Below are positions 27,730 to 64,000 of a DNA stretch of 64,000 nucleotides, in pieces (the first letter of the stretch is position 1; every line of letters begins with the position of its first letter). The notes beneath the pieces are model-generated. The model searched no databases. It was not told the DNA's origin and saw nothing but the letters and a program-made list of their open reading frames with translations. Location of the stretch: positions 248,001 to 312,000 of the forward strand of contig CALSFV010000026.1 in assembly GCA_943737045.1 (NCBI GenBank), given 5' to 3'. The stretch comes from Parapristionchus giblindavisi. Its lineage: Eukaryota > Nematoda > Chromadorea > Rhabditida > Diplogasteridae. The position numbers were made by a program, and so were the translations under genes.

Positions 27730-27732
27730 TTA

Positions 27733-28756: not shown

Positions 28757-28759
28757 TTA

Positions 28760-29669: not shown

Positions 29670-29678
29670 TCAACATAC

Positions 29679-29949: not shown

Positions 29950-30114
29950 CTGTCGGAAGAAAACATTGGGAATAAACGACACGGAATGATAAAAAAAGTA
30001 ATTATCGCCGTACAAAATAGGTTGTGGTAGATCAATCGATCGAATACATATTGGGAATAGACAATTGTTTAATTGAAAACAACTATGAATTTCATGAAAT
30101 CAAAGAATCAACTA
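29950..30114. other. Non-coding right part of TIR element core
   Basis: This AT-rich sequence lies between the candidate exon and the right inverted repeat. On the minus strand it ends in a pyrimidine-rich tract and CAG next to the exon, as an upstream intron would. Nothing else is recognised. Confidence 0.5.
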
Positions 30115-30445: not shown

Positions 30446-30448
30446 TTA

Positions 30449-39690: not shown

Positions 39691-39697
39691 CGTACTC

Positions 39698-39721
39698 TTG
39701 AATACTGAATCATCATTACTC
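39698..39721 (+). repeat. 24-bp templated insertion inside a monomer
   Basis: Paralogous monomers read CTCCGTACTCCCATC (for example 33,859 and 36,941). Here 24 bp are inserted after CGTACTC, beginning TTGAATACTGAATCATCATT. The first 15 bases copy the satellite's own TTGAATACTGAATC segment about 110 bp upstream in the monomer, followed by TACTC that restores the flank. This looks like filler copied during break repair. Confidence 0.75.
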
Positions 39722-40509
39722 CCATCTTAGCCAAAAGGCCGAGAAGATCTCGCGATCGAGAATCTACTAGAATCAATGAAGTAATTCATATATTTGTTTT
39801 TTATGAAAATGTACTTGAATACTGAATCGATATTTGAATATATTTCATATCGCTGTTTTGTGAATAGCTCTCTATCATTCTTCTCCCTACTCCCATCTTA
39901 GCCAAAAGGCCGAGAAGATCTCGCGATCGAGAATCTACTAGAATCAATGAAGTAATTCATATAATTGATTTTATGAAAATGTACTTGAATACTGAATCGA
40001 TATTTGAATATATTTCATATAGTTGTTTTGTGAATAGCTCTCTATCATTCTTCTCCCTACTCCCATCTTAGCCAAAAGGCCGTGAAGATCTCGCGATCGA
40101 GAATCTACTAGAATCAATGAAGTAATTCATATATTTGTTTTTTTATGAAAATGTACTTGAATACTGAATCGATATTTGAATATATTTCATATCGCTGTTT
40201 TGTGAATAGCTCTCTATCATTCTTCTCCCTACTCCCATCTTAGCCAAAAGGCCGAGAAGATCTCGCGATCTAGAATCTACTAGAATCAATGAAGTAATTC
40301 ATATAATTGATTTTATGAAAATGTACTTGAATACTGAATCGATATTTGAATATATTTCATATCGCTGTTTTGTGAATAGCTCTCTATCATTCTTCTCCCT
40401 ACTCCCATCTTAGCCAAAAGGCCGAGAAGATCTCGCGATCGAGAATCTACTAGAATCAATGAAGTAATTCATATAATTGATTTTATGAAAATGTACTTGA
40501 ATACTGAAT

Positions 40510-43350: not shown

Positions 43351-45560
43351 CAAAAGGCCGAGAAGATCTCGCGATCGAGAATCTATTAGAATCAATGAAG
43401 TAATTCATATATATGTTTTTTTATGAAAATGTACTTGAATACTGAATCGATATTTGAATATATTTCATATCGCTGTTTTGTGAATAGCTCTCTATCATTC
43501 TTCTCCCTACTCCCATCTTAGCCAAAAGGCCGAGAAGATCTCGCGATCGAGAATCTACTAGAATCAATGAAGTAATTCATATATTTGTTTTTTATGAAAA
43601 TGTACTTGAATACTGAATCGATATTTGAATATATTTCATATCGCTGTTTTGTGAATAGCTCTCTATCATTCTTCTCCCTACTCCCATCTTAGCCAAAAGG
43701 CTGAGAAGATCTCGCGATCGAGAATCTATTAGAATCAATGAAGTAATTCATATATTTGATTTTATGAAAATGTACTTGAAAACTGAATCGATATTTGAAT
43801 ATATTTCATATCGTTGTTTTGTGAATAGCTCTCTATCATTCTTCTCCCTACTCCCATGTTAGCCAAAACGCCGAGAAGATCTCGCGATCGAGAATCTATT
43901 AGAATCAATGAAGTAATTCATATATTTGTTTTTTTATGAAAATGTACTTGAATACTGAATCGATATTTGGATATATTTCATATCGCTGTTTTGTGAATAG
44001 CTCTCTATCATTCTTCTCCCTACTCCCATCTTAGCCAAAAGGCCGAGAAGATCTCGCGATCGAGAATCTATTAGAATCAATGAAGTAATTCATATATATG
44101 TTTTTTTATGAAAATGTACTTGAATACTGAATCGATATTTGAATATATTTCATATCGCTGTTTTGTGAATAGCTCTCTATCATTCTTCTCCCTACTCCCA
44201 TCTTAGCCAAAAGGCCGAGAAGATCTCGCCATCGAGAATCTACTAGAATCAATGAAGTAATTCATATATATGTTTTTTTATGAAAATGTACTTGAATACT
44301 GAATCGATATTTGAATATATTTCATATCGCTGTTTTGTGAATAGCTCTCTATCATTCTTCTCCCTACTCCCATGTTAGCCAAAACGCCGAGAAGATCTCG
44401 CGATCGAGAATCTATTAGAATCAATGAAGTAATTCATATATTTGTTTTTTTATGAAAATGTACTTGAAAACTGAATCGATATTTGAATATATTTCATATC
44501 GTTGTTTTGTGAATAACTCTCTATCATTCTTCTCCCTACTCCCATCTTAGCCAAAAGGCCGAGAAGATCTCGCGATCGAGAATCTACTAGAATCAATGAA
44601 GTAATTCATATATTTGTTTTTTTATGAAAATGTACTTGAATACTGAATCGATATTTGAATATATTTCATATCGCTGTTTTGTGAATAGCTCTCTATCATT
44701 CTTCTCCCTACTCCCATCTTAGCCAAAAGGCCGAGAAGATCTCGCGATCGAGAATCTACTAGAATCAATGAAGTAATTCATATATATGTTTTTTTATGAA
44801 AATGTACTTGAATACTGAATCGATATTTGAATATATTTCATATCGTTGTTTTGTGAATAACTCTCTATCATTCTTCTCCCTACTCCCATCTTAGCCAAAA
44901 GGCCGAGAAGATCTCGCGATCGAGAATCTATTAGAATCAATGAAGTAATTCATATATATGTTTTTTTATGAAAATGTACTTGAATACTGAATCGATATTT
45001 GAATATATTTCATATAGTTGTTTTGTGAATAGCTCTCTATCATTCTTCTCCGTACTCCCATCTTAGCCAAAAGGCCGAGAAGATCTCGCGATCGAGAATC
45101 TACTAGAATCAATGAAGTAATTCATATATTTGTTTTTTATGAAAATGTACTTGAATACTGAATCGATATTTGAATATATTTCATATCGCTGTTTTGTGAA
45201 TAGCTCTCTATCATTCTTCTCCCTACTCCCATCTTAGCCAAAAGGCCGAGAAGATCTCGCGATCGAGAATCTACTAGAATCAATGAAGTAATTCATATAA
45301 TTGATTTTATGAAAATGTACTTGAATACTGAATCGATATTTGAATATATTTCATATAGTTGTTTTGTGAATAGCTCTCTATCATTCTTCTCCCTACTCCC
45401 ATCTTAGCCAAAAGGCCGTGAAGATCTCGCGATCGAGAATCTACTAGAATCAATGAAGTAATTCATATATTTGTTTTTTTATGAAAATGTACTTGAATAC
45501 TGAATCGATATTTGAATATATTTCATATCGCTGTTTTGTGAATAGCTCTCTATCATTCTT
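43350..45560 (+). repeat. Full-length monomers with 685-bp HOR spacing
   Basis: TTTGGATAT occurs at 43,284 and 43,969, a 685-bp four-monomer spacing rather than the 855 bp seen elsewhere. This indicates loss of one monomer from the HOR. CTTCTCCGTACTCC is at 45,052. Nothing but satellite is seen. Confidence 0.75.
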
Positions 45561-45699
45561 CTCCTGGCGATTGAGAATCTACTAGAATCAATGAAGTAAT
45601 TCATATAATTGATTTTATGAAAATGTACTTGAATACTGAATCGATATTTGAATATATTTCATATCGCTGTTTTGTGAATAGCTCTCTATCATTCTTCTC

Positions 45700-48600
45700 C
45701 CTTCTCCCATCTTAGCCAAAAGGCCGAGAAGATCTCGCGATCTAGAATCTACTAGAATCAATGAAGTAATTCATATAATTGATTTTATGAAAATGTACTT
45801 GAATACTGAATCGATATTTGAATATATTTCATATCGCTGTTTTGTGAATAGCTCTCTATCATTCTTCTCCCTACTCCCATCTTAGCCAAAAGGCCGAGAA
45901 GATCTCGCGATCGAGAATCTACTACAATCAATGAAGTAATTCATAAAATTGATTTTATGAAAATGTACTTGAAAACTGAATCGATATTTGAATATATTTC
46001 ATATCGTTGTTTTGTGAATAGCTCTCTATCATTCTTCTCCCTTCTCCCATCTTAGCCAAAAGGCCGAGAAGATCTCGCCATCGAGAATCTACTAGAATCA
46101 ATGAAGTAATTCATAAAATTGATTTTATGAAAATGTACTTGAAAACTGAATCGATATTTGAATATATTTCATATCGTTGTTTTGTGAATAGCTCTCTATC
46201 ATTCTTCTCCCTTCTCCCATCTTAGCCAAAAGGCCGAGAAGATCTCGCCATCGAGAATCTACTAGAATCAATGAAGTAATTCATATAATTGATTTTATGA
46301 AAATGTACTTGAAAACTGAATCGATATTTGAATATATTTCATATCGATGTTTTGTGAATAGCTCTCTATCATTCTTCTCCTGGCGATTGAGAATCTACTA
46401 GAATCAATGAAGTAATTCATATAATTGATTTTATGAAAATGTACTAGAAAACTGAATCAATATTTGAATATATTTCATATAGTTGTTTTGTGAATAGCTC
46501 TCTATCATTCTTCTCCTGGCGATTGAGAATCTACTAGAATCAATGAAGTAATTCATATAATTGATTTTATGAAAACGTACTTGAATACTGAATCGATATT
46601 TGAATATATTTCATATCGTTGTTTTGTGAATAGCTCTCTATCATTCTTCTCCCTACTCCCATCTTAGCCAAAAGGCCGAGAAGATCTCGCGATCGAGAAT
46701 CTACTAGAATCAATGAAGTAATTCATATAATTGATTTTATGAAAATGTACTAGAAAACTGAATCAATATTTGAATATATTTCATATAGTTGTTTTTTGAA
46801 TAGCTCTCTATCATTCTTCTCCTGGCGATTGAGAATCTACTAGAATCAATGAAGTAATTCATATAATTGATTTTATGAAAACGTACTTGAATACTGAATC
46901 GATATTTGAATATATTTCATATCGCTGTTTTGTGAATAGCTCTCTATCATTCTTCTCCCTACTCCCATCTTAGCCAAAAGGCCGAGAAGATCTCGCGATC
47001 GAGAATCTACTAGAATCAATGAAGTAATTCATATAATTGATTTTATGAAAATGTACTAGAAAACTGAATCGATATTTGAATATATTTCATATAGTTGTTT
47101 TGTGAATAGCTCTCTATCATTCTTCTCCGTACTCCCATCTTAGCCAAAAGGCCGAGAAGATCTCGCGATCGAGAATCTACTGGAATCAATGAAGTAATTG
47201 ATATAATTGATTTTATGAAAATGTACTAGAAAACTGAATCGATATTTGAATATATTTCATATAGTTGTTTTGTGAATAGCTCTCTATCATTCTTCTCCGT
47301 ACTCCCATCTTAGCCAAAAGGCCGAGAAGATCTCGCGATCGAGAATCTACTAGAATCAATGAAGTAATTCATATATTTGTTTTTTATGAAAATGTACTTG
47401 AATACTGAATCGATATTTGAATATATTTCATATCGCTGTTTTGTGAATAGCTCTCTATCATTCTTCTCCCTACTCCCATCTTAGCCAAAAGGCCGAGAAG
47501 ATCTCGCGATCGAGAATCTACTAGAATCAATGAAGTAATTCATATAATTGATTTTATGAAAATGTACTTGAATACTGAATCGATATTTGAATATATTTCA
47601 TATAGTTGTTTTGTGAATAGCTCTCTATCATTCTTCTCCCTACTCCCATCTTAGCCAAAAGGCCGTGAAGATCTCGCGATCGAGAATCTACTAGAATCAA
47701 TGAAGTAATTCATATATTTGTTTTTTTATGAAAATGTACTTGAATACTGAATCGATATTTGAATATATTTCATATCGCTGTTTTGTGAATAGCTCTCTAT
47801 CATTCTTCTCCCTACTCCCATCTTAGCCAAAAGGCCGAGAAGATCTCGCGATCTAGATTCTACTAGAATCAATGAAGTAATTCATATAATTGATTTTATG
47901 AAAATGTACTTGAATACTGAATCGATATTTGAATATATTTCATATCGCTGTTTTGTGAATAGCTCTCTATCATTCTTCTCCCTACTCCCATCTTAGCCAA
48001 AAGGCCGAGAAGATCTCGCGATCGAGAATCTACTAGAATCAATGAAGTAATTCATATAATTGATTTTATGAAAATGTACTTGAATACTGAATCGATATTT
48101 GAATATATTTCATATCGCTGTTTTGTGAATAGCTCTCTATCATTCTTCTCCCTACTCCCATCTTAGCCAAAAGGCCGAGAAGATCTCGCGATCGAGAATC
48201 TACTACAATCAATGAAGTAATTCATAAAATTGATTTTATGAAAATGTACTTGAAAACTGAATCGATATTTGAATATATTTCATATCGTTGTTTTGTGAAT
48301 AGCTCTCTATCATTCTTCTCCCTTCTCCCATCTTAGCCAAAAGGCCGAGAAGATCTCGCCATCGAGAATCTACTAGAATCAATGAAGTAATTCATAAAAT
48401 TGATTTTATGAAAATGTACTTGAAAACTGAATCGATATTTGAATATATTTCATATCGTTGTTTTGTGAATAGCTCTCTATCATTCTTCTCCCTTCTCCCA
48501 TCTTAGCCAAAAGGCCGAGAAGATCTCGCCATCGAGAATCTACTAGAATCAATGAAGTAATTCATATAATTGATTTTATGAAAATGTACTTGAAAACTGA

Positions 48601-50260
48601 ATCGATATTTGAATATATTTCATATCGATGTTTTGTGAATAGCTCTCTATCATTCTTCTCCTGGCGATTGAGAATCTACTAGAATCAATTAAGTAATTCA
48701 TATAATTGATTTTATGAAAATGTACTAGAAAACTGAATCAATATTTGAATATATTTCATATAGTTGTTTTGTGAATAGCTCTCTATCATTCTTCTCCTGG
48801 CGATTGAGAATCTACTAGAATCAATGAAGTAATTCATATAATTGATTTTATGAAAACGTACTTGAATACTGAATCGATATTTGAATATATTTCATATCGT
48901 TGTTTTGTGAATAGCTCTCTATCATTCTTCTCCCTTCTCCCATCTGAGCCAAAAGGCCGAGAAGATCTCGCGATCGAGAACCTACTAGAATCAATGAAGT
49001 AATTGATATAATTGATTTTATGAAAATGTACTAGAAAACTGAATCAATATTTGAATATATTTCATATAGTTGTTTTGTGAATAACTCTCTATCATTCTTC
49101 TCCCTACTCCCATCTTAGCCAAAAGGCCGAGAAGATCTCGCGATCGAGAATCTACTAGAATCAATGAAGTAATTCATATAATTGATTTTATGAAAATGTA
49201 CTTGAAAACTGAATCGATATTTGAATATATTTCATATCGATGTTTTGTGAATAGCTCTCTATCATTCTTCTCCTGGCGATTGAGAATCTACTAGAATCAA
49301 TGAAGTAATTCATATAATTGATTTTATGAAAACGTACTTGAATACTGAATCGATATTTGAATATATTTCATATCGTTGTTTTGTGAATAGCTCTCTATCA
49401 TTCTTCTCCCTTCTCCCATCTGAGCCAAAAGGCCGAGAAGATCTCGCGATCGAGAATCTACTAAAATCAATGAAGTAATTGATATAATTGATTTTATGAA
49501 AATGTACTAGAAAACTGAATCAATATTTGAATATATTTCATATAGTTCTTTTGTGAATAACTCTCTATCATTCTTCTCCCTACTCCCATCTTAGCCAAAA
49601 GGCCGAGAAGATCTCGCGATCGAGAATCTACTAAAATCAATGAAGTAATTCATAAAATTGATTTTATGAAAATGTACTTGAAAACTGAATCGATATTTGA
49701 ATATATTTCATATCGTAGTTTTGTGAATAGCTCTCTATCATTCTTCTCCCTTCTCCCATCTTAGCCAAAAGGCCGAGAAGATCTCGCGATCGAGAATCTA
49801 CTAAAATCAATGAAGTAATTCATAAAATTGATTTTATGAAAATGTACTTGAAAACTGAATCGATATTTGAATATATTTCATATCGTAGTTTTGTGAATAG
49901 CTCTCTATCATTCTTCTCCCTTCTCCCATCTTAGCCAAAAGGCCGAGAAGATCTCGCGATCGAGAATCTACTAGAATCAATGAAGTAATTGATATAATTG
50001 ATTTTATGAAAATGTACTAGAAAACTGAATCAATATTTGAATATATTTCATATAGTTGTTTTGTGAATAACTCTCTATCATTCTTCTCCCTACTCCCATC
50101 TTAGCCAAAAGGCCGAGAAGATCTCGCGATCGAGAATCTACAAAAATCAATGAAGTAATTCATAAAATTGATTTTATGAAAATGTACTTGAAAACTGAAT
50201 CGATATTTGAATATATTTCATATAGTTGTTTTGTGAATAACTCTCTATCATTCTTCTCCC
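45700..50260 (+). repeat. 2,281-bp higher-order repeat
   Basis: The rare CTACTACAATC variant (ACTAC at 45,921 and 48,202) and the short-monomer junction (46,381 and 48,662) both recur at a shift of exactly 2,281 bp, with the same order of 170-bp and 136-bp units between. Beyond about 48.9 kb the copies diverge. Confidence 0.75.
46299..46434 (+). repeat. Representative 136-bp deletion monomer
   Basis: It keeps the AT dyad and pyrimidine-rich stretch. It lacks TAGCCAAAAGG and both hairpins, which are replaced by TGG. CGATCGAG has become CGATTGAG. The 3-bp filler at the junction suggests one end-joining event followed by amplification of the shortened unit. Confidence 0.9.
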
Positions 50261-50744
50261 TACTCCCATCTTAGCCAAAAGGCCGAGAAGATCTCGCGAT
50301 CGAGAATCTACTAGAATCAATGAAGTGATTGATATAATTGATTTTATGAAAATGTACTAGAAAACTGAATCAATATTTGAATATATTTCATATAGTTGTT
50401 TTGTGAATAACTCTCTATCATTCTTCTCCCTACTCCCATCTTAGCCAAAAGGCCGAAAAGATCTCGCGATCGAGAATCTACTAAAATCAATGAAGTAATT
50501 CATAAAATTGATTTTATGAAAATGTACTTGAAAACTGAATCGATATTTGAATATATTTCATATCGTTGTTTTGTGAATAGCTCTCTATCATTCTTCTCCC
50601 TTCTCCCATCTTAGCCAAAAGGCCGAGAAGATCTCGCCATCGAGAATCTACTAGAATCAATGAAGTAATTCATATAATTGATTTTATGAAAATGTACTTG
50701 AAAACTGAATCGATATTTGAATATATTTCATATCGATGTTTTGT

Positions 50745-51613
50745 GAATAGCTCTCTATCATTCTTCTCCTGGTGATTGAGAATCTACTAAAATCAATGAA
50801 GTAATTCATAAAATTGATTTTATGAAAATGTACTTGAAAACTGAATCGATATTTGAATATATTTCATATCGTTGTTTTGTGAATAGCTCTCTATCATTCT
50901 TCTCCCTTCTCCCATCTTAGCCAAAAGGCCGAGAAGATCTCGCCATCGAGAATCTACTAGAATCAATGAAGTAATTCATATAATTGATTTTATGAAAATG
51001 TACTTGAAAACTGAATCGATATTTGAATATATTTCATATCGATGTTTTGTGAATTTTCATAAAATCAATTATATCAATTACTTCATTGATTCTAGTAGAT
51101 TCTCGATCGCGAGATCTTCTCGGCCTTTTGGCTCAGATGGGAGAAGGGAGAAGAATGATAGAGAGCTATTCACAAAACAACGATATGAAATATATTCAAA
51201 TATCGATTCAGTATTCAAGTACATTTTCATAAAATCAATTATATGAATTACTTCATTGATTCTAGTAGATTCTCAATCGCCAGGAGAAGAATGATAGAGA
51301 GCTATTCACAAAACATCGATATGAAATATATTCAAATATCGATTCAGTTTTCAAGTACATTTTCATAAAATCAATTATATGAATTACTTCATTGATTCTA
51401 GTAGATTCTCGATGGCGAGATCTTCTCGGCCTTTTGGCTAAGATGGGAGAAGGGAGAAGAATGATAGAGAGCTATTCACAAAACAACGATATGAAATATA
51501 TTCAAATATCGATTCAGTTTTCAAGTACATTTTCATAAAATCAATTTTATGAATTACTTCATTGATTTTAGTAGATTCTCAATCGCCAGGAGAAGAATGA
51601 TAGAGAGCTATTC
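50745..51613. repeat. Inverted satellite duplication 1 (foldback)
   Basis: Orientation flips at TGTGAAT|TTTCATAAAATC (51054/51055) and returns at AGAGCTATTC|TTGATTTTATG (51613/51614). The inverted block 51055-51613 is 559 bp. Its outer part (about 51304-51613), read on the minus strand, repeats the variant order of the forward stretch just before it (about 50745-51054: one 136-bp unit, then one CTCGCCATCGAG 170-bp unit). It is therefore an inverted copy rather than a simple flip, with arms of about 306 bp around a 250-bp spacer. The frame 50992-51246 spans the junction and is not a gene. Confidence 0.9.
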
Positions 51614-53360
51614 TTGATTTTATGAAAATGTACTTGAAAACTGAATCGATATTTGAATATATTTCATATCGATTTTTTGTGAATAGCTCTCTATCATTCT
51701 TCTCCTGGCGATTGAGAATCTACTAGAATCAATGAAGTAATTCATATAATTGATTTTATGAAAATGTACTTGAATACTGAATCGATATTTGAATATATTT
51801 CATATCGTTGTTTTGTGAATAACTCTCTATCATTCTTCTCCCTACTCCCATCTTAGCCAAAATGCCGAGAAGATCTCGCGATCGAGAATCTACTAAAATC
51901 AATGAAGTAATTCATAAAATTGATTTTATGAAAATGTACTTGAAAACTGAATCGATATTTGAATATATTTCATATCGTTGTTTTGTGAATAGCTCTCTAT
52001 CATTCTTCTCCCTTCTCCCATCTTAGCCAAAAGGCCGAGAAGATCTCGCCATCGAGAATCTACTAGAATCAATGAAGTAATTCATATAATTGATTTTATG
52101 AAAATGTACTTGAATACTGAATCGATATTTGAATATATTTCATATAGTTGTTTTGTGAATAGCTCTCTATCATTCTTCTCCGTACTCCCATCTTAGCCAA
52201 AAGGCCGAGAAGATCTCGCCATCGAGAATCTACTAGAATCAATGAAGTAATTCATATAATTGATTTTATGAAAATGTACTTGAATACTGAATCGATATTT
52301 GAATATATTTCATATAGTTGTTTTGTGAATAGCTCTCTATCATTCTTCTCCGTACTCCCATCTTAGCCAAAAGGCCGAGAAGATCTCGCGATCGAGAATC
52401 TACTAGAATCAATGAAGTAATTCATATATTTGTTTTTTATGAAAATGTACTTGAATACTGAATCGATATTTGAATATATTTCATATCGCTGTTTTGTGAA
52501 TAGCTCTCTATCATTCTTCTCCCTACTCCCATCTTAGCCAAAAGGCCGAGAAGATCTCGCGATCGAGAATCTACTAGAATCAATGAAGTAATTCATATAT
52601 TTGTTTTTTATGAAAATGTACTTGAATACTGAATCGATATTTGAATATATTTCATATCGTTGTTTTGTGAATAGCTCTCTATTATTCTTCTCCCTTCTCC
52701 CATCTGAGCCAAAAGGCCGAGAAGATCTCGCGATCGAGAATCTACTAGAATCAATGAAGTAATTCATATAATTGATTTTATGAAAATGTACTTGAATACT
52801 GAATCGATATTTGAATATATTTCATATAGTTGTTTTGTGAATAGCTCTCTATCATTCTTCTCCCTACTCCCATCTTAGCCAAAAGGCCGTGAAGATCTCG
52901 CGATCGAGAATCTACTAGAATCAATGAAGTAATTCATATATTTGTTTTTTTATGAAAATGTACTTGAATACTGAATCGATATTTGAATATATTTCATATC
53001 GCTGTTTTGTGAATAGCTCTCTATCATTCTTCTCCCAACTCCCATCTTAGCCAAAAGGCCGAGAAGATCTCGCGATCTAGAATCTACTAGAATCAATGAA
53101 GTAATTCATATAATTGATTTTATGAAAATGTACTTGAATACTGAATCGATATTTGAATATATTTCATATCGCTGTTTTGTGAATAGCTCTCTATCATTCT
53201 TCTCCCTACTCCCATCTTAGCCAAAAGGCCGAGAAGATCTCGCGATCGAGAATCTACTAGAATCAATGAAGTAATTCATATAATTGATTTTATGAAAATG
53301 TACTTGAAAACTGAATCGATATTTGAATATATTTCATATCGATGTTTTGTGAATAGCTCT
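51614..53360 (+). repeat. Forward satellite after inversion 1
   Basis: A monomer starting at TTGATTTTATG with ATCGATTTTTTGTG (51,670) follows the junction, then a 136-bp unit, then 170-bp units including two with CTTCTCCGTACTCC (52,182 and 52,352). The first 0.5 kb repeats at 58.8-59.3 kb. Confidence 0.8.
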
Positions 53361-53373
53361 CTATCATTCTTCT

Positions 53374-54600
53374 CCTGGCGATTGAGAATCTACTAGAATC
53401 AATGAAGTAATTCATATAATTGATTTTATGAAAATGTACTAGAAAACTGAATCAATATTTGAATATATTTCATATAGTTGTTTTGTGAATAGCTCTCTAT
53501 CATTCTTCTCCTGGCGATTGAGAATCCACTAGAATCAATGAAGTAATTCATATAATTGATTTTATGAAAACGTACTTGAATACTGAATCGCTATTTGAAT
53601 ATATTTCATATCGTTGTTTTGTGAATAGCTCTCTATCATTCTTCTCCCTTCTCCCATCTGAGCCAAAAGGCCGAGAAGATCTCGCGATCGAGAACCTACT
53701 AGAATCAATGAAGTAATTGATATAATTGATTTTATGAAAATGTACTAGAAAACTGAATCAATATTTGAATATATTTCATATAGTTGTTTTGTGAATAACT
53801 CTCTATCATTCTTCTCCCTACTCCCATCTTAGCCAAAAGGCCGAGAAGATCTCGCCATCGAGAATCTACTAGAATCAATGAAGTAATTCATATAATTGAT
53901 TTTATGAAAATGTACTTGAAAACTGAATCGATATTTGAATATATTTCATATCGATGTTTTGTGAATAGCTCTCTATCATTCTTCTCCTGGCGATTGAGAA
54001 TCTACTAGAATCAATGAAGTAATTCATATAATTGATTTTATGAAAATGTACTAGAAAACTGAATCAATATTTGAATATATTTCATATAGTTGTTTTGTGA
54101 ATAGCTCTCTATCATTCTTCTCCTGGCGATTGAGAATCCACTAGAATCAATGAAGTAATTCATATAATTGATTTTATGAAAACGTACTTGAATACTGAAT
54201 CGCTATTTGAATATATTTCATATCGTTGTTTTGTGAATAGCTCTCTATCATTCTTCTCCCTTCTCCCATCTGAGCCAAAAGGCCGAGAAGATCTCGCGAT
54301 CGAGAACCTACTAGAATCAATGAAGTAATTGATATAATTGATTTTATGAAAATGTACTAGAAAACTGAATCAATATTTGAATATATTTCATATAGTTGTT
54401 TTGTGAATAACTCTCTATCATTCTTCTCCCTACTCCCATCTTAGCCAAAAGGCCGAGAAGATCTCGCCATCGAGAATCTACTAGAATCAATGAAGTAATT
54501 CATATAATTGATTTTATGAAAATGTACTTGAAAACTGAATCGATATTTGAATATATTTCATATCGATGTTTTGTGAATAGCTCTCTATCATTCTTCTCCT
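53374..54600 (+). repeat. 612-bp HOR of 136+136+170+170 bp units
   Basis: AGAATCCACT is at 53521 and 54133, a shift of 612 bp, equal to two short plus two full monomers. AATCGCTATTTG and GAGAACCTACTAG recur in the same register. The unit recurs around 55.72-56.33 kb. Confidence 0.85.
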
Positions 54601-54830
54601 GGCGATTGAGAATCTACTAGAATCAATGAAGTAATTCATATAATTGATTTTATGAAAATGTACTAGAAAACTGAATCAATATTTGAATATATTTCATATA
54701 GTTGTTTTGTGAATAGCTCTCTATCATTCTTCTCCTGGCGATTGAGAATCTACTAGAATCAATGAAGTAATTCATATAATTGATTTTATGAAAACGTACT
54801 TGAATACTGAATCGATATTTGAATATATTA

Positions 54831-55019
54831 TTCTATCCATTTCGTATTATTCTCCCTTATAGGATTTCTACTACCCATACTACATGTGCCTCTAGAAGTA
54901 TAGACTGTTGGAATTCACTCCCATCAGAATTAGTTCTTTCTTCCCCTAAACCCTTCCGTGCAGGGTTATCAAATCTCCCCTCTACCCTCATCATTAAAGA
55001 TTCTCGAATTCGTCCCTAA
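54831..55019 (+). pseudogene. LINE reverse-transcriptase C-terminal fragment, copy 1
   Basis: The frame ends in TAA at 55017-55019. It contains SRSIDCWNSLPSELVLSS followed by PFRAGLSNL. The pattern of an aromatic-Asn-Ser-Leu-Pro motif followed by a hydrophobic Phe...Leu helix is the familiar tail of many LINE ORF2 proteins. The longer open frame from 54819 begins in satellite sequence, so its first residues do not belong to the element. Only about 62 residues remain, so it has no activity. Confidence 0.82.
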
Positions 55020-55162
55020 ACCCTCATCCTTTACAAACTGCCACCGAGCCAAAACCGAAATCGCCTTATGCGACGGAAATCCATCTATCCCTCTTCTGTG
55101 TACACGTCATCCTACTATTATATATATTTGATGGAATAAAGAATAAATAAATAAATAAATAA
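55020..55162 (+). other. LINE 3' UTR and AAAT-type tail, copy 1
   Basis: After the stop come about 115 bp of non-coding sequence, ending GATGGAATAAAG, then five or six AAAT/AATA units. Microsatellite tails rather than pure poly(A) are common in several arthropod LINE clades. Confidence 0.75.
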
Positions 55163-55167
55163 ATATT

Positions 55168-56561
55168 TCATATCGTTGTTTTGTGAATAGCTCTCTATCA
55201 TTCTTCTCCCTTCTCCCATCTGAGCCAAAAGGCCGAGAAGATCTCGCGATCGAGAACCTACTAGAATCAATGAAGTAATTGATATAATTGATTTTATGAA
55301 AATGTACTAGAAAACTGAATCAATATTTGAATATATTTCATATAGTTGTTTTGTGAATAACTCTTTATCATTCTTCTCCCTACTCCCATCTTAGCCAAAA
55401 GGCCGAGAAGATCTCGCGATCGAGAATCTACTAGAATCAATGAAGTAATTCATATAATTGATTTTATGAAAATGTACTTGAAAACTGAATCGATATTTGA
55501 ATATATTTCATATCGCTGTTTTGTGAATAGCTCTCTATCATTCTTCTCCCTACTCCCATCTTAGCCAAAAGGCCGAGAAGATCTCGCGATCGAGAATCTA
55601 CTAGAATCAATGAAGTAATTCATATAATTGATTTTATGAAAATGTACTTGAAAACTGAATCGATATTTGAATATATTTCATATCGATGTTTTGTGAATAG
55701 CTCTCTATCATTCTTCTCCTGGCGATTGAGAATCTACTAGAATCAATGAAGTAATTCATATAATTGATTTTATGAAAATGTACTAGAAAACTGAATCAAT
55801 ATTTGAATATATTTCATATAGTTGTTTTGTGAATAGCTCTCTATCATTCTTCTCCTGGCGATTGAGAATCCACTAGAATCAATGAAGTAATTCATATAAT
55901 TGATTTTATGAAAACGTACTTGAATACTGAATCGCTATTTGAATATATTTCATATCGTTGTTTTGTGAATAGCTCTCTATCATTCTTCTCCCTTCTCCCA
56001 TCTGAGCCAAAAGGCCGAGAAGATCTCGCGATCGAGAACCTACTAGAATCAATGAAGTAATTGATATAATTGATTTTATGAAAATGTACTAGAAAACTGA
56101 ATCAATATTTGAATATATTTCATATAGTTGTTTTGTGAATAACTCTCTATCATTCTTCTCCCTACTCCCATCTTAGCCAAAAGGCCGAGAAGATCTCGCC
56201 ATCGAGAATCTACTAGAATCAATGAAGTAATTCATATAATTGATTTTATGAAAATGTACTTGAAAACTGAATCGATATTTGAATATATTTCATATCGATG
56301 TTTTGTGAATAGCTCTCTATCATTCTTCTCCTGGCGATTGAGAATCTACTAGAATCAATGAAGTAATTCATATAATTGATTTTATGAAAATGTACTAGAA
56401 AACTGAATCAATATTTGAATATATTTCATATAGTTGTTTTGTGAATAGCTCTCTATCATTCTTCTCCTGGCGATTGAGAATCTACTAGAATCAATGAAGT
56501 AATTCATATAATTGATTTTATGAAAACGTACTTGAATACTGAATCGATATTTGAATATATT
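55168..56561 (+). repeat. Satellite between the two LINE copies
   Basis: This contains 170-bp units and a 136/136/170/170 block homologous to 53.37-54.6 kb. One monomer carries the private change ACTCTTTATC (near 55,361). Nothing but satellite is present. Confidence 0.8.
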
Positions 56562-56894
56562 ATTCTATCCATTTCGTATTATTCTCCCTTATAGGATTTC
56601 TACTACCCATACTACATGTGCCTCTAGAAGTATAGACTGTTGGAATTCACTCCCATCAGAATTAGTTCTTTCTTCCCCTAAACCCTTCCGTGCAGGGTTA
56701 TCAAATCTCCACTCTACCCTCATCATTAAAGATTCTCGAATTCGTCCCTAAACCCTCATCCTTTACAAACTGCCACCGAGCCAAAACCGAAATCGCCTTA
56801 TGCGACGGAAATCCATCTATCCCTCTTCTGTGTACACGTCATCCTACTATTATATATATTTGATGGAATAAAGAATAAATAAATAAATAAATAA
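56562..56894 (+). mobile_element. 5'-truncated LINE 3' end, copy 2 (duplicated with satellite)
   Basis: It has the same 5' truncation point, the same insertion site and the same tail length as copy 1. One difference noticed in the coding part is CTCCCCTCTACC in copy 1 against CTCCACTCTACC here, changing Pro to His. Two independent insertions would not share the truncation point and tail, so this copy arose by duplication of the flanking satellite. Confidence 0.9.
56563..56751 (+). pseudogene. LINE reverse-transcriptase C-terminal fragment, copy 2
   Basis: It is identical to copy 1 except LSNLHSTL in place of LSNLPSTL. It retains WNSLPSEL and ends at the same TAA. It is a non-functional remnant. 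Confidence 0.82.
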
Positions 56895-58246
56895 ATATTT
56901 CATATCGTTGTTTTGTGAATAGCTCTCTATCATTCTTCTCCCTTCTCCCATCTGAGCCAAAAGGCCGAGAAGATCTCGCGATCGAGAATCTACTAAAATC
57001 AATGAAGTAATTGATATAATTGATTTTATGAAAATGTACTAGAAAACTGAATCAATATTTGAATATATTTCATATAGTTGTTTTGTGAATAACTCTCTAT
57101 CATTCTTCTCCCTACTCCCATCTTAGCCAAAAGGCCGAGAAGATCTCGCGATCGAGAATCTACTAAAATCAATGAAGTAATTCATAAAATTGATTTTATG
57201 AAAATGTACTTGAAAACTGAATCGATATTTGAATATATTTCATATCGTAGTTTTGTGAATAGCTCTCTATCATTCTTCTCCCTTCTCCCATCTTAGCCAA
57301 AAGGCCGAGAAGATCTCGCGATCGAGAATCTACTAGAATCAATGAAGTAATTGATATAATTGATTTTATGAAAATGTACTAGAAAACTGAATCAATATTT
57401 GAATATATTTCATATAGTTGTTTTGTGAATAACTCTCTATCATTCTTCTCCCTACTCCCATCTTAGCCAAAAGGCCGAGAAGATCTCGCGATCGAGAATC
57501 TACTAAAATCAATGAAGTAATTCATAAAATTGATTTTATGAAAATGTACTTGAAAACTGAATCGATATTTGAATATATTTCATATAGTTGTTTTGTGAAT
57601 AACTCTCTATCATTCTTCTCCCTACTCCCATCTTAGCCAAAAGGCCGAGAAGATCTCGCGATCGAGAATCTACTAGAATCAATGAAGTAATTGATATAAT
57701 TGATTTTATGAAAATGTACTAGAAAACTGAATCAATATTTGAATATATTTCATATCGTTGTTTTGTGAATAGCTCTCTATCATTCTTCTCCCTTCTCCCA
57801 TCTTAGCCAAAAGGCCGAGAAGATCTCGCCATCGAGAATCTACTAGAATCAATGAAGTAATTCATATAATTGATTTTATGAAAATGTACTTGAAAACTGA
57901 ATCGATATTTGAATATATTTCATATCGATGTTTTGTGAATAGCTCTCTATCATTCTTCTCCTGGTGATTGAGAATCTACTAAAATCAATGAAGTAATTCA
58001 TAAAATTGATTTTATGAAAATGTACTTGAAAACTGAATCGATATTTGAATATATTTCATATCGTTGTTTTGTGAATAGCTCTCTATCATTCTTCTCCCTT
58101 CTCCCATCTTAGCCAAAAGGCCGAGAAGATCTCGCCATCGAGAATCTACTAGAATCAATGAAGTAATTCATATAATTGATTTTATGAAAATGTGCTTGAA
58201 AACTGAATCGATATTTGAATATATTTCATATCGATGTTTTGTGAAT
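56895..58246 (+). repeat. Satellite between LINE copy 2 and inversion 2
   Basis: 170-bp units alternate CTAGAAAACTGAATCAATATT and CTTGAAAACTG types (about 340-bp dimers at 56.95-57.75 kb, as at 49.4-50.5 kb). These are followed by the TGGTGATTGAG short unit that also precedes inversion 1. Confidence 0.8.
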
Positions 58247-58805
58247 TTTCATAAAATCAATTATATCAATTACTTCATTGATTCTAGTAGATTCTCGATC
58301 GCGAGATCTTCTCGGCCTTTTGGCTCAGATGGGAGAAGGGAGAAGAATGATAGAGAGCTATTCACAAAACAACGATATGAAATATATTCAAATATCGATT
58401 CAGTATTCAAGTACATTTTCATAAAATCAATTATATGAATTACTTCATTGATTCTAGTAGATTCTTAATCGCCAGGAGAAGAATGATAGAGAGCTATTCA
58501 CAAAACATCGATATGAAATATATTCAAATATCGATTCAGTTTTCAAGTACATTTTCATAAAATCAATTATATGAATTACTTCATTGATTCTAGTAGATTC
58601 TCGATGGCGAGATCTTCTCGGCCTTTTGGCTAAGATGGGAGAAGGGAGAAGAATGATAGAGAGCTATTCACAAAACAACGATATGAAATATATTCAAATA
58701 TCGATTCAGTTTTCAAGTACATTTTCATAAAATCAATTTTATGAATTACTTCATTGATTTTAGTAGATTCTCAATCGCCAGGAGAAGAATGATAGAGAGC
58801 TATTC
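58247..58805 (-). repeat. Inverted satellite block 2 (559 bp)
   Basis: Both junctions and the length are the same as in block 1 (58246/58247 and 58805/58806), exactly 7,192 bp to the right. It is a copy made by large-scale duplication. It differs by TTCTTAATCGCC (58,462) for TTCTCAATCGCC. Confidence 0.92.
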
Positions 58806-59352
58806 TTGATTTTATGAAAATGTACTTGAAAACTGAATCGATATTTGAATATATTTCATATCGATTTTTTGTGAATAGCTCTCTATCATTCTTCTCCTGG
58901 CGATTGAGAATCTACTAGAATCAATGAAGTAATTCATATAATTGATTTTATGAAAATGTACTTGAATACTGAATCGATATTTGAATATATTTCATATCGT
59001 TGTTTTGTGAATAACTCTCTATCATTCTTCTCCCTACTCCCATCTTAGCCAAAATGCCGAGAAGATCTCGCGATCGAGAATCTACTAAAATCAATGAAGT
59101 AATTCATAAAATTGATTTTATGAAAATGTACTTGAAAACTGAATCGATATTTGAATATATTTCATATCGTTGTTTTGTGAATAGCTCTCTATCATTCTTC
59201 TCCCTTCTCCCATCTTAGCCAAAAGGCCGAGAAGATCTCGCCATCGAGAATCTACTAGAATCAATGAAGTAATTCATATAATTGATTTTATGAAAATGCA
59301 CTTGAAAACTGAATCGATATTTGAATATATTTCATATCGATGTTTTGTGAAT

Positions 59353-59911
59353 TTTCATAAAATCAATTATATCAATTACTTCATTGATTCTAGTAGATTC
59401 TCGATCGCGAGATCTTCTCGGCCTTTTGGCTCAGATGGGAGAAGGGAGAAGAATGATAGAGAGCTATTCACAAAACAACGATATGAAATATATTCAAATA
59501 TCGATTCAGTATTCAAGTACATTTTCATAAAATCAATTATATGAATTACTTCATTGATTCTAGTAGATTCTCAATCGCCAGGAGAAGAATGATAGAGAGC
59601 TATTCACAAAACATCGATATGAAATATATTCAAATATCGATTCAGTTTTCAAGTACATTTTCATAAAATCAATTATATGAATTACTTCATTGATTCTAGT
59701 AGATTCTCGATGGCGAGATCTTCTCGGCCTTTTGGCTAAGATGGGAGAAGGGAGAAGAATGATAGAGAGCTATTCACAAAACAACGATATGAAATATATT
59801 CAAATATCGATTCAGTTTTCAAGTACATTTTCATAAAATCAATTTTATGAATTACTTCATTGATGTTAGTAGATTCTCAATCGCCAGGAGAAGAATGATA
59901 GAGAGCTAGTC
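59353..59911 (-). repeat. Inverted satellite block 3 (559 bp)
   Basis: It begins 1,106 bp after block 2 with the same left junction TGTGAAT|TTTCAT. The right junction reads GAGAGCTAGTC|TTGATTTTATG, with a T-to-G change. A GATGTTAGTAG change is also private (59,863). Blocks 2 and 3 therefore form a 1,106-bp tandem unit that contains both orientations. Confidence 0.92.
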
Positions 59912-62560
59912 TTGATTTTATGAAAATGTACTTGAAAACTGAATCGATATTTGAATATATTTCATATCGATTTTTTGTGAATAGCTCTCTATCATTCTTC
60001 TCCTGGCGATTGAGAATCTACTAGAATCAATGAAGAAATTCATATAATTGATTTTATGAAAATGTACTTGAATACTGAATCGATTTTTGAATATATTTCA
60101 TATCGTTGTTTTGTGAATAGCTCTCTATCATTCTTCTCCCTTCTCCCATCTTAGCCAAAAGGCCGAGAAGATCTCGCGATCTAGAATCTACTAGAATCAA
60201 TGAAGAAATTCATAAAATTGATTTTATGAAAATGTACTTGAAAACTGAATCGATATTTGAATATATTTCATATCGTTGTTTTGTGAATAACTCTCTATCA
60301 TTCTTCTCCCTACTCCCATCTTAGCCAAATGCCGAGAAGATCTCGCGATCGAGAATCTACTAAAATCAATAAAGTAATTCATAAAATTGATTTTATGAAA
60401 ATGTACTTGAAAACTGAATCGATATTTGAATATATTTCATATCGTTGTTTTGTGAATAACTCTCTATCATTCTTCTCCCTACTCCCATCTTAGCCAAATG
60501 CCGAGAAGATCTCGCGATCGAGAATCTACTAAAATCAATGAAGTAATTCATAAAATTGATTTTATGAAAATGTACTTGAAAACTGAATCGATATTTGAAT
60601 ATATTTCATATCGTTGTTTTGTGAATAGCTCTCTATCATTCTTCTCCCTTCTCCCATCTTAGCCAAAAGGCCGAGAAGATCTCGCGATCTAGAATCTACT
60701 AGAATCAATGAAGAAATTCATAAAATTGATTTTATGAAAATGTACTTGAAAACTGAATCGATATTTGAATATATTTCATATCGTTGTTTTGTGAATAACT
60801 CTCTATCATTCTTCTCCCTACTCCCATCTTAGCCAAATGCCGAGAAGATCTCGCGATCGAGAATCTACTAAAATCAATAAAGTAATTCATAAAATTGATT
60901 TTATGAAAATGTACTTGAAAACTGAATCGATATTTGAATATATTTCATATCGTTGTTTTGTGAATAACTCTCTATCATTCTTCTCCCTACTCCCATCTTA
61001 GCCAAATGCCGAGAAGATCTCGCGATCGAGAATCTACTAAAATCAATGAAGTAATTCATAAAATTGATTTTATGAAAATGTACTTGAAAACTGAATCGAT
61101 ATTTGAATATATTTCATATCGTTGTTTTGTGAATAGCTCTCTATCATTCTTCTCCCTTCTCCCATCTTAGACAAAAGGCCGAGAAGATCTCGCGATCTAG
61201 AATCTACTAGAATCAATGAAGAAATTCATAAAATTGATTTTATGAAAATGTACTTGAAAACTGAATCGATATTTGAATATATTTCATATCGATGTTTTGT
61301 GAATAGCTCTCTATCATTCTTCTCCTGGCGATTGAGAATCTACTAGAATCAATGAAGAAATTCATAAAATTGATTTTATGAAAATGTACTTGAAAACTGA
61401 ATCGATATTTGAATATATTTCATATCGCTATTTTGTGAATAGCTCTCTATCATTCTTCTCCTGGCGATTGAGAATCTACTAGAATCAATGAAGTAATTCA
61501 TATAATTGATTTTATGTAAATGTACTTGAAAACTGAATCGATATTTGAATATATTTCATATCGTGGTTTTGTGAATAACTCTCTATCATTCTTCTCCCTA
61601 CTCCCATCTTAGTCAAATGCCGAGAAGATCTCGCGATCGAGAATCTACTAGAATCAATGAAGAAATTCATAAAATTGATTTTATGAAAATGTACTTGAAA
61701 ACTGAATCGATATTTGAATATATTTCATATCGTTGTTTTGTGAATAGCTCTCTATCATTCTTCTCCCTTCTCCCATCTTAGCCAAAAGGCCGAGAAGATC
61801 TCGCGATCGAGAATCTACTAAAATCAATGAAGTAATTCATAAAATTGATTTTATGAAAATGTACTTGAAAACTGAATCGATATTTGAATATATTTCATAT
61901 AGTTGTTTTGTGAATAGCTCTCTATCATTCTTCTCCTGGCGATTGAGAATCTACTAGAATCAATGAAGTAATTCATATAATTGATTTTATGTAAATGTAC
62001 TTGAAAACTGAATCGATATTTGAATATATTTCATATCGTGGTTTTGTGAATAACTCTCTATCATTCTTCTCCCTACTCCCATCTTAGTCAAATGCCGAGA
62101 AGATCTCGCGATCGAGAATCTACTAGAATCAATGAAGTAATTCATAAAATTGATTTTATGAAAATGTACTTGAAAACTGAATCGATATTTGAATATATTT
62201 CATATAGTTGTTTTGTGAATAACTCTCTATCATTCTTCTCCCTACTCCCATCTTAGCCAAAAGGCCGAGAAGATCTCGCGATCGAGAATCTACTAGAATC
62301 AATGAAGTAATTGATATAATTGATTTTATGAAAATGTACTAGAAAACTGAATCAATATTTGAATATATTTCATATCGTTGTTTTGTGAATAGCTCTCTAT
62401 CATTCTTCTCCCTTCTCCCATCTTAGCCAAAAGGCCGAGAAGATCTCGCCATCGAGAATCTACTAGAATCAATGAAGTAATTCATATAATTGATTTTATG
62501 AAAATGTACTTGAAAACTGAATCGATATTTGAATATATTTCATATCGATGTTTTGTGAAT
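59912..62560 (+). repeat. Forward satellite with 508-bp HOR
   Basis: Monomers with a two-base-shorter core, AGCCAAATGCCGAG, appear in pairs (near 60,325 and 60,494; then 60,833 and 61,002). The shift between pairs is 508 bp, three monomers. GTAAATGTACTTG and AGTCAAATGCC variants recur at 61,514/61,991 and 61,612/62,089. Confidence 0.75.
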
Positions 62561-63765
62561 TTTCATAAAATCAATTATATCAATTACTTCATTGATTCTA
62601 GTAGATTCTCGATCGCGAGATCTTCTCGGCCTTTTGGCTCAGATGGGAGAAGGGAGAAGGATGATAGAGAGCTATTCACAAAACAACGATATGAAATATA
62701 TTCAAATATCGATTCAGTATTCAAGTACATTTTCATAAAATCAATTATATGAATTACTTCATTGATTCTAGTAGATTCTCAATCGCCAGGAGAAGAATGA
62801 TAGAGAGCTATTCACAAAACATCTATATGAAATATATTCAAATATCGATTCAGTTTTCAAGTACATTTTCATAAAATCAATTATATGAATTACTTCATTG
62901 ATTCTAGTAGATTCTCGATGGCGAGATCTTCTCGGCCTTTTGGCTAAGATGGGAGAAGGGAGAAGAATGATAGAGAGCTATTCACAAAACAACAATATGA
63001 AATATATTCAAATATCGATTCAGTTTTCAAGTACATTTTCATAAAATCAATTTTATGAATTACTTCATTGATTTTAGTAGATTCTCGATCGCGAGATCTT
63101 CTCGGCCTTTTGGCTAAGATGGGAGTAGGGAGAAGAATGATAGAGAGTTATTCACAAAACAACGATATGAAATATATTCAAATATCGATTCAGTTTTCAA
63201 GTACATTTTCATAAAATCAATTTTATGAATTTCTTCATTGATTCTAGTAGATTCTAGATCGCGAGATCTTCTCGGCCTTTTGGCTAAGATGGGAGAAGGG
63301 AGAAGAATGATAGAGAGCTATTCACAAAACAACGATATGAAATATATTCAAATATCGATTCAGTATTCAAGTACATTTTCATAAAATCAATTATATGAAT
63401 TACTTCATTGATTCTAGTAGATTCTCAATCGCCAGGAGAAGAATGATAGAGAGCTATTCACAAAACATCGATATGAAATATATTCAAATATCGATTCAGT
63501 TTTCAAGTACATTTTCATAAAATCAATTATATGAATTACTTCATTGATTCTAGTAGATTCTCGATGGCGAGATCTTCTCGGCCTTTTGGATAAGATGGGA
63601 GAAGGGAGAAGAATGATAGAGAGCTATTCACAAAACAACGATATGAAATATATTCAAATATCGATTCAGTTTTCAAGTACATTTTCATAAAATCAATTTT
63701 ATGAATTACTTCATTGATTTTAGTAGATTCTCAATCGCCAGGAGAAGAATGATAGAGAGCTATTC
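62561..63765 (-). repeat. Inverted satellite block 4 (1,205 bp)
   Basis: The left and right junctions match the other blocks, but the block is 646 bp longer. The added part, around 63,050-63,400, contains full-length inverted units including one with TCTAGATCGCGAG. This shows that the inverted blocks themselves gain and lose monomers. Confidence 0.9.
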
Positions 63766-64000
63766 TTGATTTTATGAAAATGTACTTGAAAACTGAATCG
63801 ATATTTGAATATATTTCATATCGATTTTTTGTGAATAGCTCTCTATCATTCTTCTCCTGGCGATTGAGAATCTACTAGAATCAATGAAGTAATTCATATA
63901 ATTGATTTTATGAAAATGTACTTGAATACTGAATCGATATTTGAATATATTTCATATCGCTGTTTTGTGAATAGCTCTCTATCATTCTTCTCCCTTCTCC
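63766..64000 (+). repeat. Forward satellite to window end
   Basis: Forward orientation resumes with TTGATTTTATG, the ATCGATTTTTTGTG variant and one 136-bp unit. The window then ends inside a monomer at CCCTTCTCC. Confidence 0.85.

What the first reader, a model, noticed from the sequence alone, without database searches (positions are those of the whole stretch)
51055..63765. An inverted satellite block has become part of a higher-order repeat
Four blocks of reversed monomers share identical junctions (TGTGAAT|TTTCAT and GCTATTC|TTGATT). Three are exactly 559 bp and the fourth is 1,205 bp. Spacings of 7,192 and 1,106 bp show that one inversion event was amplified as a mixed-orientation unit. 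Satellite HORs usually keep one orientation, so an amplified foldback unit is unusual and could form hairpins or cruciforms in DNA or RNA.
Basis: seen in the sequence. Interest (0 to 1): 0.78.

Follow-up and report, generated by a model that had tools for sequence, protein, structure and literature searches.

The report
Inverted satellite block, copied eight times
In a long stretch of tandemly repeated DNA, a short piece was once flipped around and the flipped piece was then copied several times nearby; similar flipped repeats are known from flour beetles, so this is a neat but not wholly new case.

Summary
The window is a head-to-tail 170-bp satellite array with four reversed blocks: 51055-51613, 58247-58805, 59353-59911 (559 bp each) and 62561-63765 (1,205 bp). 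One detail is wrong: the third block's right junction is GCTAGTC|TTGATT. Four more reversed blocks follow just outside the window. The left junction is shared by 7 of 8 blocks and the right by 8 of 8; exact searches found neither elsewhere in the 251-Mb assembly. Undoing the inversion with 4-bp and 14-bp overlaps restores the ordinary monomer at both ends, so the best account is one staggered-break inversion, later amplified locally. It is not a regular higher-order repeat: two short tandem clusters exist, but 7,192 bp is not a period. The 15.9-kb block has its own left junction, a foldback with a 5-nt loop. The genome is probably a nematode's. The closest known case is the inverted satellite subarrays with conserved inversion sites in Tribolium beetles. 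The consensus monomer also carries 23 nt of the U2 snRNA 5' end, and the array borders a 1,163-bp tandem array of U2-gene spacer, so it probably arose in a dead U2 cluster. Reads could not be checked.

The parts
1..64000 (+). 170-bp satellite array (length classes 136, 169-175 bp), head to tail except for the four reversed blocks; interrupted at 27338-27729, 28760-30438, 54830-55162, 56562-56894. Part of an array at contig 212,566-364,774.
51055..51613 (-). reversed block B1, 559 bp; junctions 51054|51055 and 51613|51614
58247..58805 (-). reversed block B2, 559 bp; junctions 58246|58247 and 58805|58806
59353..59911 (-). reversed block B3, 559 bp; right junction is the variant GCTAGTC|TTGATT
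62561..63765 (-). reversed block B4, 1,205 bp
58247..60458 (.). tandem mixed-orientation pair inside the window: B2 unit 58247-59352 and B3 unit 59353-60458, 1,106 bp each, 98.2% identical over 1,105 aligned
49703..52160 (.). segment holding B1 that recurs at 56895-59352 (2,458 bp, 98.3%); the left end of the second copy abuts a 333-bp retroelement remnant
50466..51586 (.). inverted-repeat pair at the left junction of B1: arms 50466-50997 and 51055-51586, 98.5% identical, 57-bp spacer
1130..1151 (-). first exact copy of the 22-nt stretch of the U2 snRNA 5' end; exact copies in the window: 116 antisense to the + strand, none of them in a reversed block, and 6 in sense, all six in reversed blocks

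Best explanation
A stretch of an ordinary head-to-tail 170/136-bp satellite array was inverted once, by two staggered breaks re-joined in reverse, which duplicated 4 bp at one breakpoint and 14 bp at the other. The reversed block with both its junctions was then copied within about 40 kb by local duplication and unequal exchange, which also changed its length by whole monomers (423, 559, 1,205 bp). One copy became or stayed large (15.9 kb) and its left end was rebuilt by a separate foldback. Shown here: shared breakpoints, no exact copy elsewhere in the assembly, restored monomer phase, high similarity of the copies. Inferred: staggered breaks, unequal exchange, order of events. No function is indicated: the most likely reading is satellite turnover, with hairpin capacity as a by-product.
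For: Left junction in 7 of 8 blocks and right junction in 8 of 8, base for base apart from a T/G variant on the right and one substitution in B6 on the left. Exact counts in the assembly: left 6 (B6 is missed), right 3 + 5, all on C26 in one orientation. Undoing the inversion with overlaps of 4 and 14 bp gives consensus monomer sequence on the left in 6 of 7 blocks (B6 has one substitution) and on the right in 7 of 7 (B5 not tested there). Random phases would agree this well in about 1% of cases ((9/170)x(29/170), my arithmetic). The reverse complement of each of the six blocks tested (B1-B4, B7, B8) aligns end to end to forward array at 96.9-97.9%, less than the seven copies resemble each other around the left junction (336-340 of 340), so the inversion is probably older than its spread. 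Left-junction windows of 340 bp differ from their best match in the distal part by a median of 2 positions (120 windows), forward windows by 7 (1,025). Tandem units 97.7-99.9% identical.
Against: No reads were seen. The phase argument has only moderate strength (about 1%), and two template switches could give the same picture. Spacings are irregular. B5 shares only the right junction, and around it differs from the other blocks at 11-18 of 371-404 positions, so its place in the history is unclear. In one search right-junction windows (median 9 of 340) and windows inside reversed blocks (median 27) are no closer between the two zones than forward windows (7), and 16 of the 120 left-junction windows differ at 20 or more positions; the 136-bp length difference between the two groups of blocks probably inflates these figures (not tested separately). 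The 340-bp windows overlap and are not independent.
Confidence: 0.72

Rival explanations
1. Two template switches during repair or replication: the copying strand folded back at the left junction, copied the reverse strand for some monomers, then switched again to the forward strand. The block would be an inverted duplication, not an in-place inversion. Amplification as in the main account.
For: B1 and the forward sequence just left of it form arms of 532 bp at 98.5% with a 57-bp spacer, slightly closer than the best full-length forward match elsewhere (97.9% over 559 bp). A foldback with a 5-nt loop and 31 paired bases before the first mismatch exists at the left end of B5.
Against: It does not predict that both breakpoints fall in matching monomer phase with overlaps of 4 and 14 bp. 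For B7 and B8 the six best forward matches listed tie at 96.9%, places about 30-38 kb away among them, so nothing points to the adjacent flank as the source.
Confidence: 0.2
2. Assembly artefact: collapsed or mis-joined repeats made the reversed blocks.
For: Satellites are hard to assemble, and reads could not be checked. The authors of the Tribolium study also warn of misassembly and went back to their raw reads.
Against: Copies carry their own differences (T/G variant, different lengths and flanks), there is no N in the 204 kb joined from the window and its neighbours, and the left junction recurs in seven places with outer flanks that part at different distances. An artefact would need to do this repeatedly.
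Confidence: 0.05
3. The reversed module spreads preferentially: its hairpin-forming junction is a hot spot for breaks and conversion that copies the module through the array.
For: Left-junction flanks of B1, B7 and B8, up to about 39.6 kb apart, are identical over 340 bp; left-junction windows are more alike between the two zones than forward ones (median 2 against 7); a 299-nt strand across the B1 junction folds at -142.7 kcal/mol (shuffles -27.9, sd 3.45) against -24.5 (z -1.0) for an ordinary array stretch.
Against: Eight copies in 40 kb also fit plain duplication, the copies are confined to one neighbourhood, and right-junction and interior windows show no excess similarity. Inverted-repeat arms at the left junctions of B2-B4 and B6-B8 are less perfect than at B1 (86-97% in the best local alignments, with spacers of 57-227 bp).
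Confidence: 0.1

Closest known systems
Inverted satellite subarrays ('macro-dyad symmetries') with conserved inversion sites in Tribolium madens, T. freemani, T. castaneum (PMC13081366; passages and section 7 read)
   Same: Monomers change orientation within an array; the inversion sites are nearly identical from copy to copy (98-99% in T. madens; 0-4 differences in 340 bp here); large hairpins are possible.
   Different: In T. madens thousands of inversion sites lie in megabase-scale putative (peri)centromeric regions and arrays tend to two arms of similar length; here eight blocks lie in one 40-kb zone, seven of them 0.4-1.2 kb long, inside a 152-kb array, with two-ended junctions. The organism is probably a nematode.
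Tribolium brevicornis satellite, 1,061-bp monomer with inverted ~470-bp segments (as described in PMC13081366; the original paper was not read)
   Same: A mixed-orientation unit amplified as such.
   Different: A regular monomer there; here irregular spacing and variable unit length.
Large inversions in orangutan and macaque alpha-satellite arrays (PMC10312506, passages read)
   Same: Inversion inside a satellite array.
   Different: One or two inversions of 1.0-3.2 Mb per array there; small, multiplied blocks here.
Satellites derived from gene clusters, such as the ribosomal-DNA-derived satellite of tomato (PMC2679016, search listing and start of abstract only)
   Same: Satellite next to, and probably derived from, a tandem RNA gene cluster.
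   Different: Here the cluster is U2 snRNA; the satellite keeps only 23 nt of the gene, reversed relative to the neighbouring spacer.

Membership tests
Satellite arrays with inverted subarrays and conserved inversion sites (Tribolium type) | change of monomer orientation within one array | tested here: met
   8 reversed blocks in C26:299,055-339,106
Satellite arrays with inverted subarrays and conserved inversion sites (Tribolium type) | inversion sites conserved in sequence between copies | tested here: met
   left junction 7 of 8, right junction 8 of 8; 0-4 differences in 340 bp around the left one
Satellite arrays with inverted subarrays and conserved inversion sites (Tribolium type) | direct and inverted arms of similar length (macro-dyad) | tested here: not met
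   inverted blocks 423-1,205 bp (one 15,859 bp) in an array of about 152 kb
Satellite arrays with inverted subarrays and conserved inversion sites (Tribolium type) | present at many places of the genome | tested here: not met
   exact junctions found on one contig only
Satellite arrays with inverted subarrays and conserved inversion sites (Tribolium type) | (peri)centromeric position | not testable with these tools
   no chromatin or cytological data
Higher-order repeat (HOR) | a multi-monomer unit repeated in tandem with higher identity between units than between monomers | tested here: inconclusive
   B2-B3 98.2%, B6-B7 99.9%, B7-B8 97.7% in tandem; but spacings in the window are 7,192, 1,106 and 3,208 bp and there is no 7.2-kb period
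Staggered-break inversion | inverted duplication of the breakpoint sequence at both ends | tested here: met
   overlaps of 4 bp (GAAT) and 14 bp (TTGATTTTATGAAA) restore the monomer in 6 of 7 (left) and 7 of 7 (right) blocks; the defining feature is recalled, and the papers listed were not opened
Satellite derived from a U2 snRNA cluster | homology to U2 gene and spacer, with an intermediate | tested here: met
   23-nt exact match (1,000 shuffles reached at most 16); adjoining 1,163-bp units 84-85% identical to U2 spacer over about 955 bp, and matching the satellite at 72-74% over 221 bp, with stretches of 97 bp at 77% and 52 bp at 85% against one monomer
Satellite derived from a U2 snRNA cluster | the rest of the monomer traceable to the U2 unit or its promoter | tested here: not met
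   upstream and downstream of the 22-nt core no better than shuffled sequence: 820, 587 and 984 of 2,000 as good

The most novel reading that the evidence does not exclude
In a probable nematode, a satellite born in a dead U2 snRNA gene cluster acquired one small inversion whose hairpin-forming junction has since propagated itself through the array, giving an early stage of the mixed-orientation satellite architecture so far described from Tribolium.
Probability: 0.15. Interest if true: 0.6.

Novelty: new member of a known kind. Interest (0 to 1): 0.38.

Why it matters
It shows, at single-base resolution, how a satellite array can start to carry both orientations: one break-and-rejoin event, then copying of the reversed piece with its junctions. 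The authors of the Tribolium study wrote that macro-dyad satellite symmetries had been documented only in that genus (PMC13081366, discussion passage). A small-scale case outside beetles would let one ask whether hairpin-forming inversions spread because of their structure or just by drift. The neighbouring U2-derived array adds a visible candidate intermediate between a gene cluster and a satellite.

Tried and rejected
Rejected: a 7,192-bp higher-order period (2,458 bp recur). Rejected: that the satellite carries a U2 promoter; a motif ACCCGTCTCG, noticed by eye upstream of the U2 genes printed and present upstream of 3 of 6 U1 genes, is absent from the consensus monomer and from the window on both strands, and the upstream alignment is no better than shuffled sequence. 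Rejected: selection on the U2-like stretch; it is more variable than the rest of the monomer (0.060 against 0.032; 133 of 148 windows are more conserved; 168 distinct forward monomers of 168-176 bp). Rejected: microRNA families (MIR7533, MIR6027, MIR8742 score highest) in Rfam; the matches lie below the gathering scores and reflect inverted repeats. The U2 matches are below the gathering score too; the U2 link rests on the exact match and the neighbouring array, not on that search. Led nowhere: identifying the species through a mitochondrial gene (not completed) and through a reverse transcriptase (best hit 52% identical and unnamed).

Literature: searches. None of the titles listed (15 of 23, 3 of 3) was about a satellite derived from U2 snRNA genes; I judged from listings only. 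Papers opened: PMC13081366 (passages and section 7), PMC8122249 (passages), PMC10312506 (passages), PMC13427858 (passages: it only cites the first). PMC2679016 was seen as a listing only. PMC5615363 was asked for and not shown.
Full report
WHAT IS THERE. The window is contig C26, 248,001-312,000, of a 251-Mb, 703-contig assembly. It is filled by a 170-bp satellite that runs, with interruptions, from 212,566 to 364,774 of the contig, with length classes 170, 169-175 and 136 bp. The 136-bp class lacks 34 bp in the middle of the monomer. Satellite before window position 51,055 points one way. After that, reversed blocks appear: B1 51055-51613, B2 58247-58805, B3 59353-59911 (559 bp each), B4 62561-63765 (1,205 bp). 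Beyond the window follow B5 (contig 312,162-328,020, 15,859 bp) and B6, B7, B8 (336,169-336,591, 337,511-337,933, 338,684-339,106; 423 bp each).

THE JUNCTIONS. The left junction GTGAAT|TTTCAT (TTGAAT in B6) is shared by 7 of 8 blocks; B5 differs. The right junction GCTA[T/G]TC|TTGATT is shared by 8 of 8: T in B1, B2, B4 and G in B3, B5-B8. In the whole assembly the exact 22-mer of the left junction occurs 6 times (B6 is missed) and the right junction 3 + 5 times, all on C26, all in one orientation. Around the left junction 340 bp differ by 0-4 positions among the 7 copies; B1, B7 and B8 are identical though B1 and B8 lie about 39.6 kb apart. Around the right junction (255 bp inside, 150 bp outside) B1-B4 differ by 0-4 of 405, B6-B8 by 0-5 of 404-405, the two groups by 6-7 of 371-372 plus a length difference of the 34-bp kind, and B5 from the others by 11-18 of 371-404.

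HOW IT AROSE. In monomer coordinates (from 0) the last forward base is 60, the block starts at 173 (that is 3 of the next monomer) and ends at 57, and the array resumes at 160. Turning the block back requires an overlap of 4 bp (GAAT) on one side and 14 bp (TTGATTTTATGAAA) on the other, and then gives consensus monomer sequence on the left in 6 of 7 blocks (B6 has one substitution) and on the right in 7 of 7 (B5, which has another left junction, was not tested). I read this as the mark of two staggered breaks; agreement this close by chance is about 1% (my arithmetic). The rival, two template switches, is not excluded: the left arms of B1 (532 bp, 98.5%, spacer 57 bp) look like a foldback of the adjacent array. 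In the best local alignments the left-junction arms of the other blocks are B2 97.4% (spacer 57), B3 86.5% and B4 91.1% (spacer 113), B6-B8 96.0% (spacer 227). The reverse complement of each tested block (B1, B2, B3, B4, B7, B8) aligns end to end with forward array at 96.9-97.9%. As the copies agree better with each other around the left junction, the inversion seems older than its spread.

HOW IT SPREAD. Blocks B2 and B3 lie in tandem units of 1,106 bp (98.2% identical over 1,105 aligned), B6 and B7 in units of 1,342 and 1,173 bp (99.9% over 1,173), B7 and B8 at 97.7% over 1,104 aligned of 1,173. B1 and B2 share 2,458 bp at 98.3%, not the full 7,192 bp. The left limit of that similarity at B2 is the end of a 333-bp retroelement remnant. 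I therefore call it a locally amplified mixed-orientation module rather than a regular higher-order repeat. Block lengths differ by sums of monomer lengths (559 - 423 = 136), as unequal exchange would produce. As a control, 340-bp windows of the proximal zone were matched to the distal zone: windows over left junctions differ by a median of 2 positions (120 windows; 16 of them by 20 or more), forward windows by 7 (1,025), right-junction windows by 9 (120), windows inside reversed blocks by 27 (152), mixed windows by 6.5 (32); windows touching the two retroelement remnants were dropped. So the left junction looks more recently shared than ordinary array, while the other classes do not; the two groups of blocks differ by a 136-bp monomer, which probably counts against those classes.

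BLOCK B5. The 15.9-kb block resembles forward array at 348-361 kb: 5,066 bp at 99.41% and 3,775 bp at 99.44%. Among the 60 longest of the 915 pairs found (at least 900 bp and 97%), the four above 99% are all inverted pairs. Its left junction is a separate foldback, CATTCTTCT-AAGGG-AGAAGAATG, with a 5-nt loop and 31 paired bases before the first mismatch; further out this register decays, and the best local alignment of the flanks instead has 396-bp arms at 99.0% with a 141-bp spacer. The junction word occurs once in the assembly. It suggests a second inversion-type event. B5 may be the original large inversion or a later expansion; I cannot tell which.

HAIRPINS. A 299-nt single strand across the B1 left junction folds as DNA at -142.7 kcal/mol (200 shuffles: mean -27.9, sd 3.45); one ordinary stretch of the array, of equal length, gives -24.5 (mean -21.2, sd 3.19). 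That is capacity, not evidence of formation in cells. The Rfam microRNA matches at these places are below the curated scores and reflect the inverted repeats.

WHERE THE SATELLITE COMES FROM. The consensus monomer shares 23 nt exactly with the U2 snRNA gene of this genome, near its 5' end; 1,000 dinucleotide shuffles reached at most 16 against the whole 1,571-bp unit. In the window the 22-nt core occurs 116 times antisense to the + strand, none in a reversed block, and 6 times in sense, all six in reversed blocks. Complete U2 genes were found on C7 (10, 1,571-bp units) and C13 (36, mostly about 1,540-bp units); only 46 of 23,216 candidates were scored, so these are lower bounds and other places are not excluded. 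Directly upstream of the satellite (contig 180-212.5 kb, start not reached) lies a tandem array of 1,163-bp units, 99.1-100% alike between 188 and 212.5 kb. Over about 955 bp the unit is 84-85% identical to the U2 spacer. In place of the gene it has about 221 bp that match the satellite arrays at 72-74%, with stretches of 97 bp at 77% and 52 bp at 85% against one monomer. A full unit of the C13 cluster is 87.4% identical to that of C7 over 1,566 bp. Within the 221-bp part, positions 1-58 recur at 170-227 (94.8%), that is, about 1.3 monomers with the satellite's period. I infer a third U2 cluster that lost its gene and gave birth to the satellite. Against a fuller derivation: outside the 23 nt the monomer does not resemble the U2 promoter or gene beyond chance. 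The U2-like stretch is not especially conserved within the satellite and is part of what the 136-bp class has lost.

WHICH ORGANISM. The assembly has 899 exact matches to four TTAGGC units (166 + 733); the places listed, a part of these, lie at one spot of C1 and at the very start of C3. The six U1 genes fetched start AAACTTACCTGGCTGGGGG. Both fit a nematode; that reading is from memory, not from a database.

COMPARISON WITH WHAT IS KNOWN. In Tribolium madens, satellite arrays change orientation and the inversion sites are 98-99% conserved over thousands of copies (PMC13081366, section 7). The authors state that such macro-dyad symmetries were documented only in Tribolium; the one other paper in the library with that phrase merely cites it. 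Orangutan and macaque alpha-satellite arrays carry inversions of 1.0-3.2 Mb (PMC10312506, passages). The present case works like the Tribolium one in that one set of inversion junctions was multiplied, but it lacks equal arms and genome-wide spread. I file it as a new member of a known kind.

LIMITS. No reads, no relatives, no expression data. Assembly-wide counts are exact-match counts. Of the 1.08-Mb contig, 180,001-392,000 was read, and 6 kb each from 100,001 and 1,056,001. Two further small patches of the satellite were found, on C301 (326,236-328,032) and C26 (1,059,826-1,060,768), by a search that scored 11 of 132 candidates, so more may exist.

Noticed in passing
C26:180,001-212,500 (L050, L007-L009; outside the window): A 1,163-bp tandem array, 84-85% identical to the spacer of the U2 snRNA gene clusters, with a satellite-like piece instead of the gene: a probable dead U2 cluster and parent of the satellite.
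   Followed up: partly
window 27338-27729 and 28760-30438: Two elements with different inverted ends (TGGCGCACT... and CAAGGGAACTACC...) both sit at the same TTA inside the U2-like stretch of a monomer, with TTA on both sides. The consensus monomer has four TTA/TAA sites.
   Followed up: partly
window 54830-55162 and 56562-56894; C26:345,471-346,540; C26:364,775 onwards: Two 333-bp 3' remnants of a non-LTR-type element (AATAAATA tail), in segments duplicated at a distance of 1,732 bp (2,209 bp at 98.3%), and longer elements downstream with reverse-transcriptase-like frames (the matches of the second carry Pfam PF00078).
   Followed up: partly
C26:293,483-363,622: The 136-bp monomer class equals the 170-bp one minus 34 bp that hold the U2-like stretch. 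Of 165 spacings of 136 bp, one lies at 215,547 and the rest between 293,483 and 363,622: they begin about 5.6 kb before the first reversed block and run on past the last.
   Followed up: partly
C13:1,004,806-1,020,446 and 1,043,218-1,083,010: The U2 cluster on C13 also contains two blocks of genes in opposite orientation.
   Followed up: no
L051 (C26:100,001-106,000): A different short tandem repeat (unit roughly 40 bp by eye...GATTCGACCAGGGAATCACTCAGAAGCAAGGGGCTAGCCCA...) on the same contig.
   Followed up: no
C16 (U1), C280 (U5), and single or few copies on other contigs including C26:942,741-943,299 (U5): Tandem arrays of further snRNA genes: 36 U1 matches over the cut-off (42 scored of 3,105 candidates) and 47 U5 (47 scored of 27,984).
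   Followed up: no
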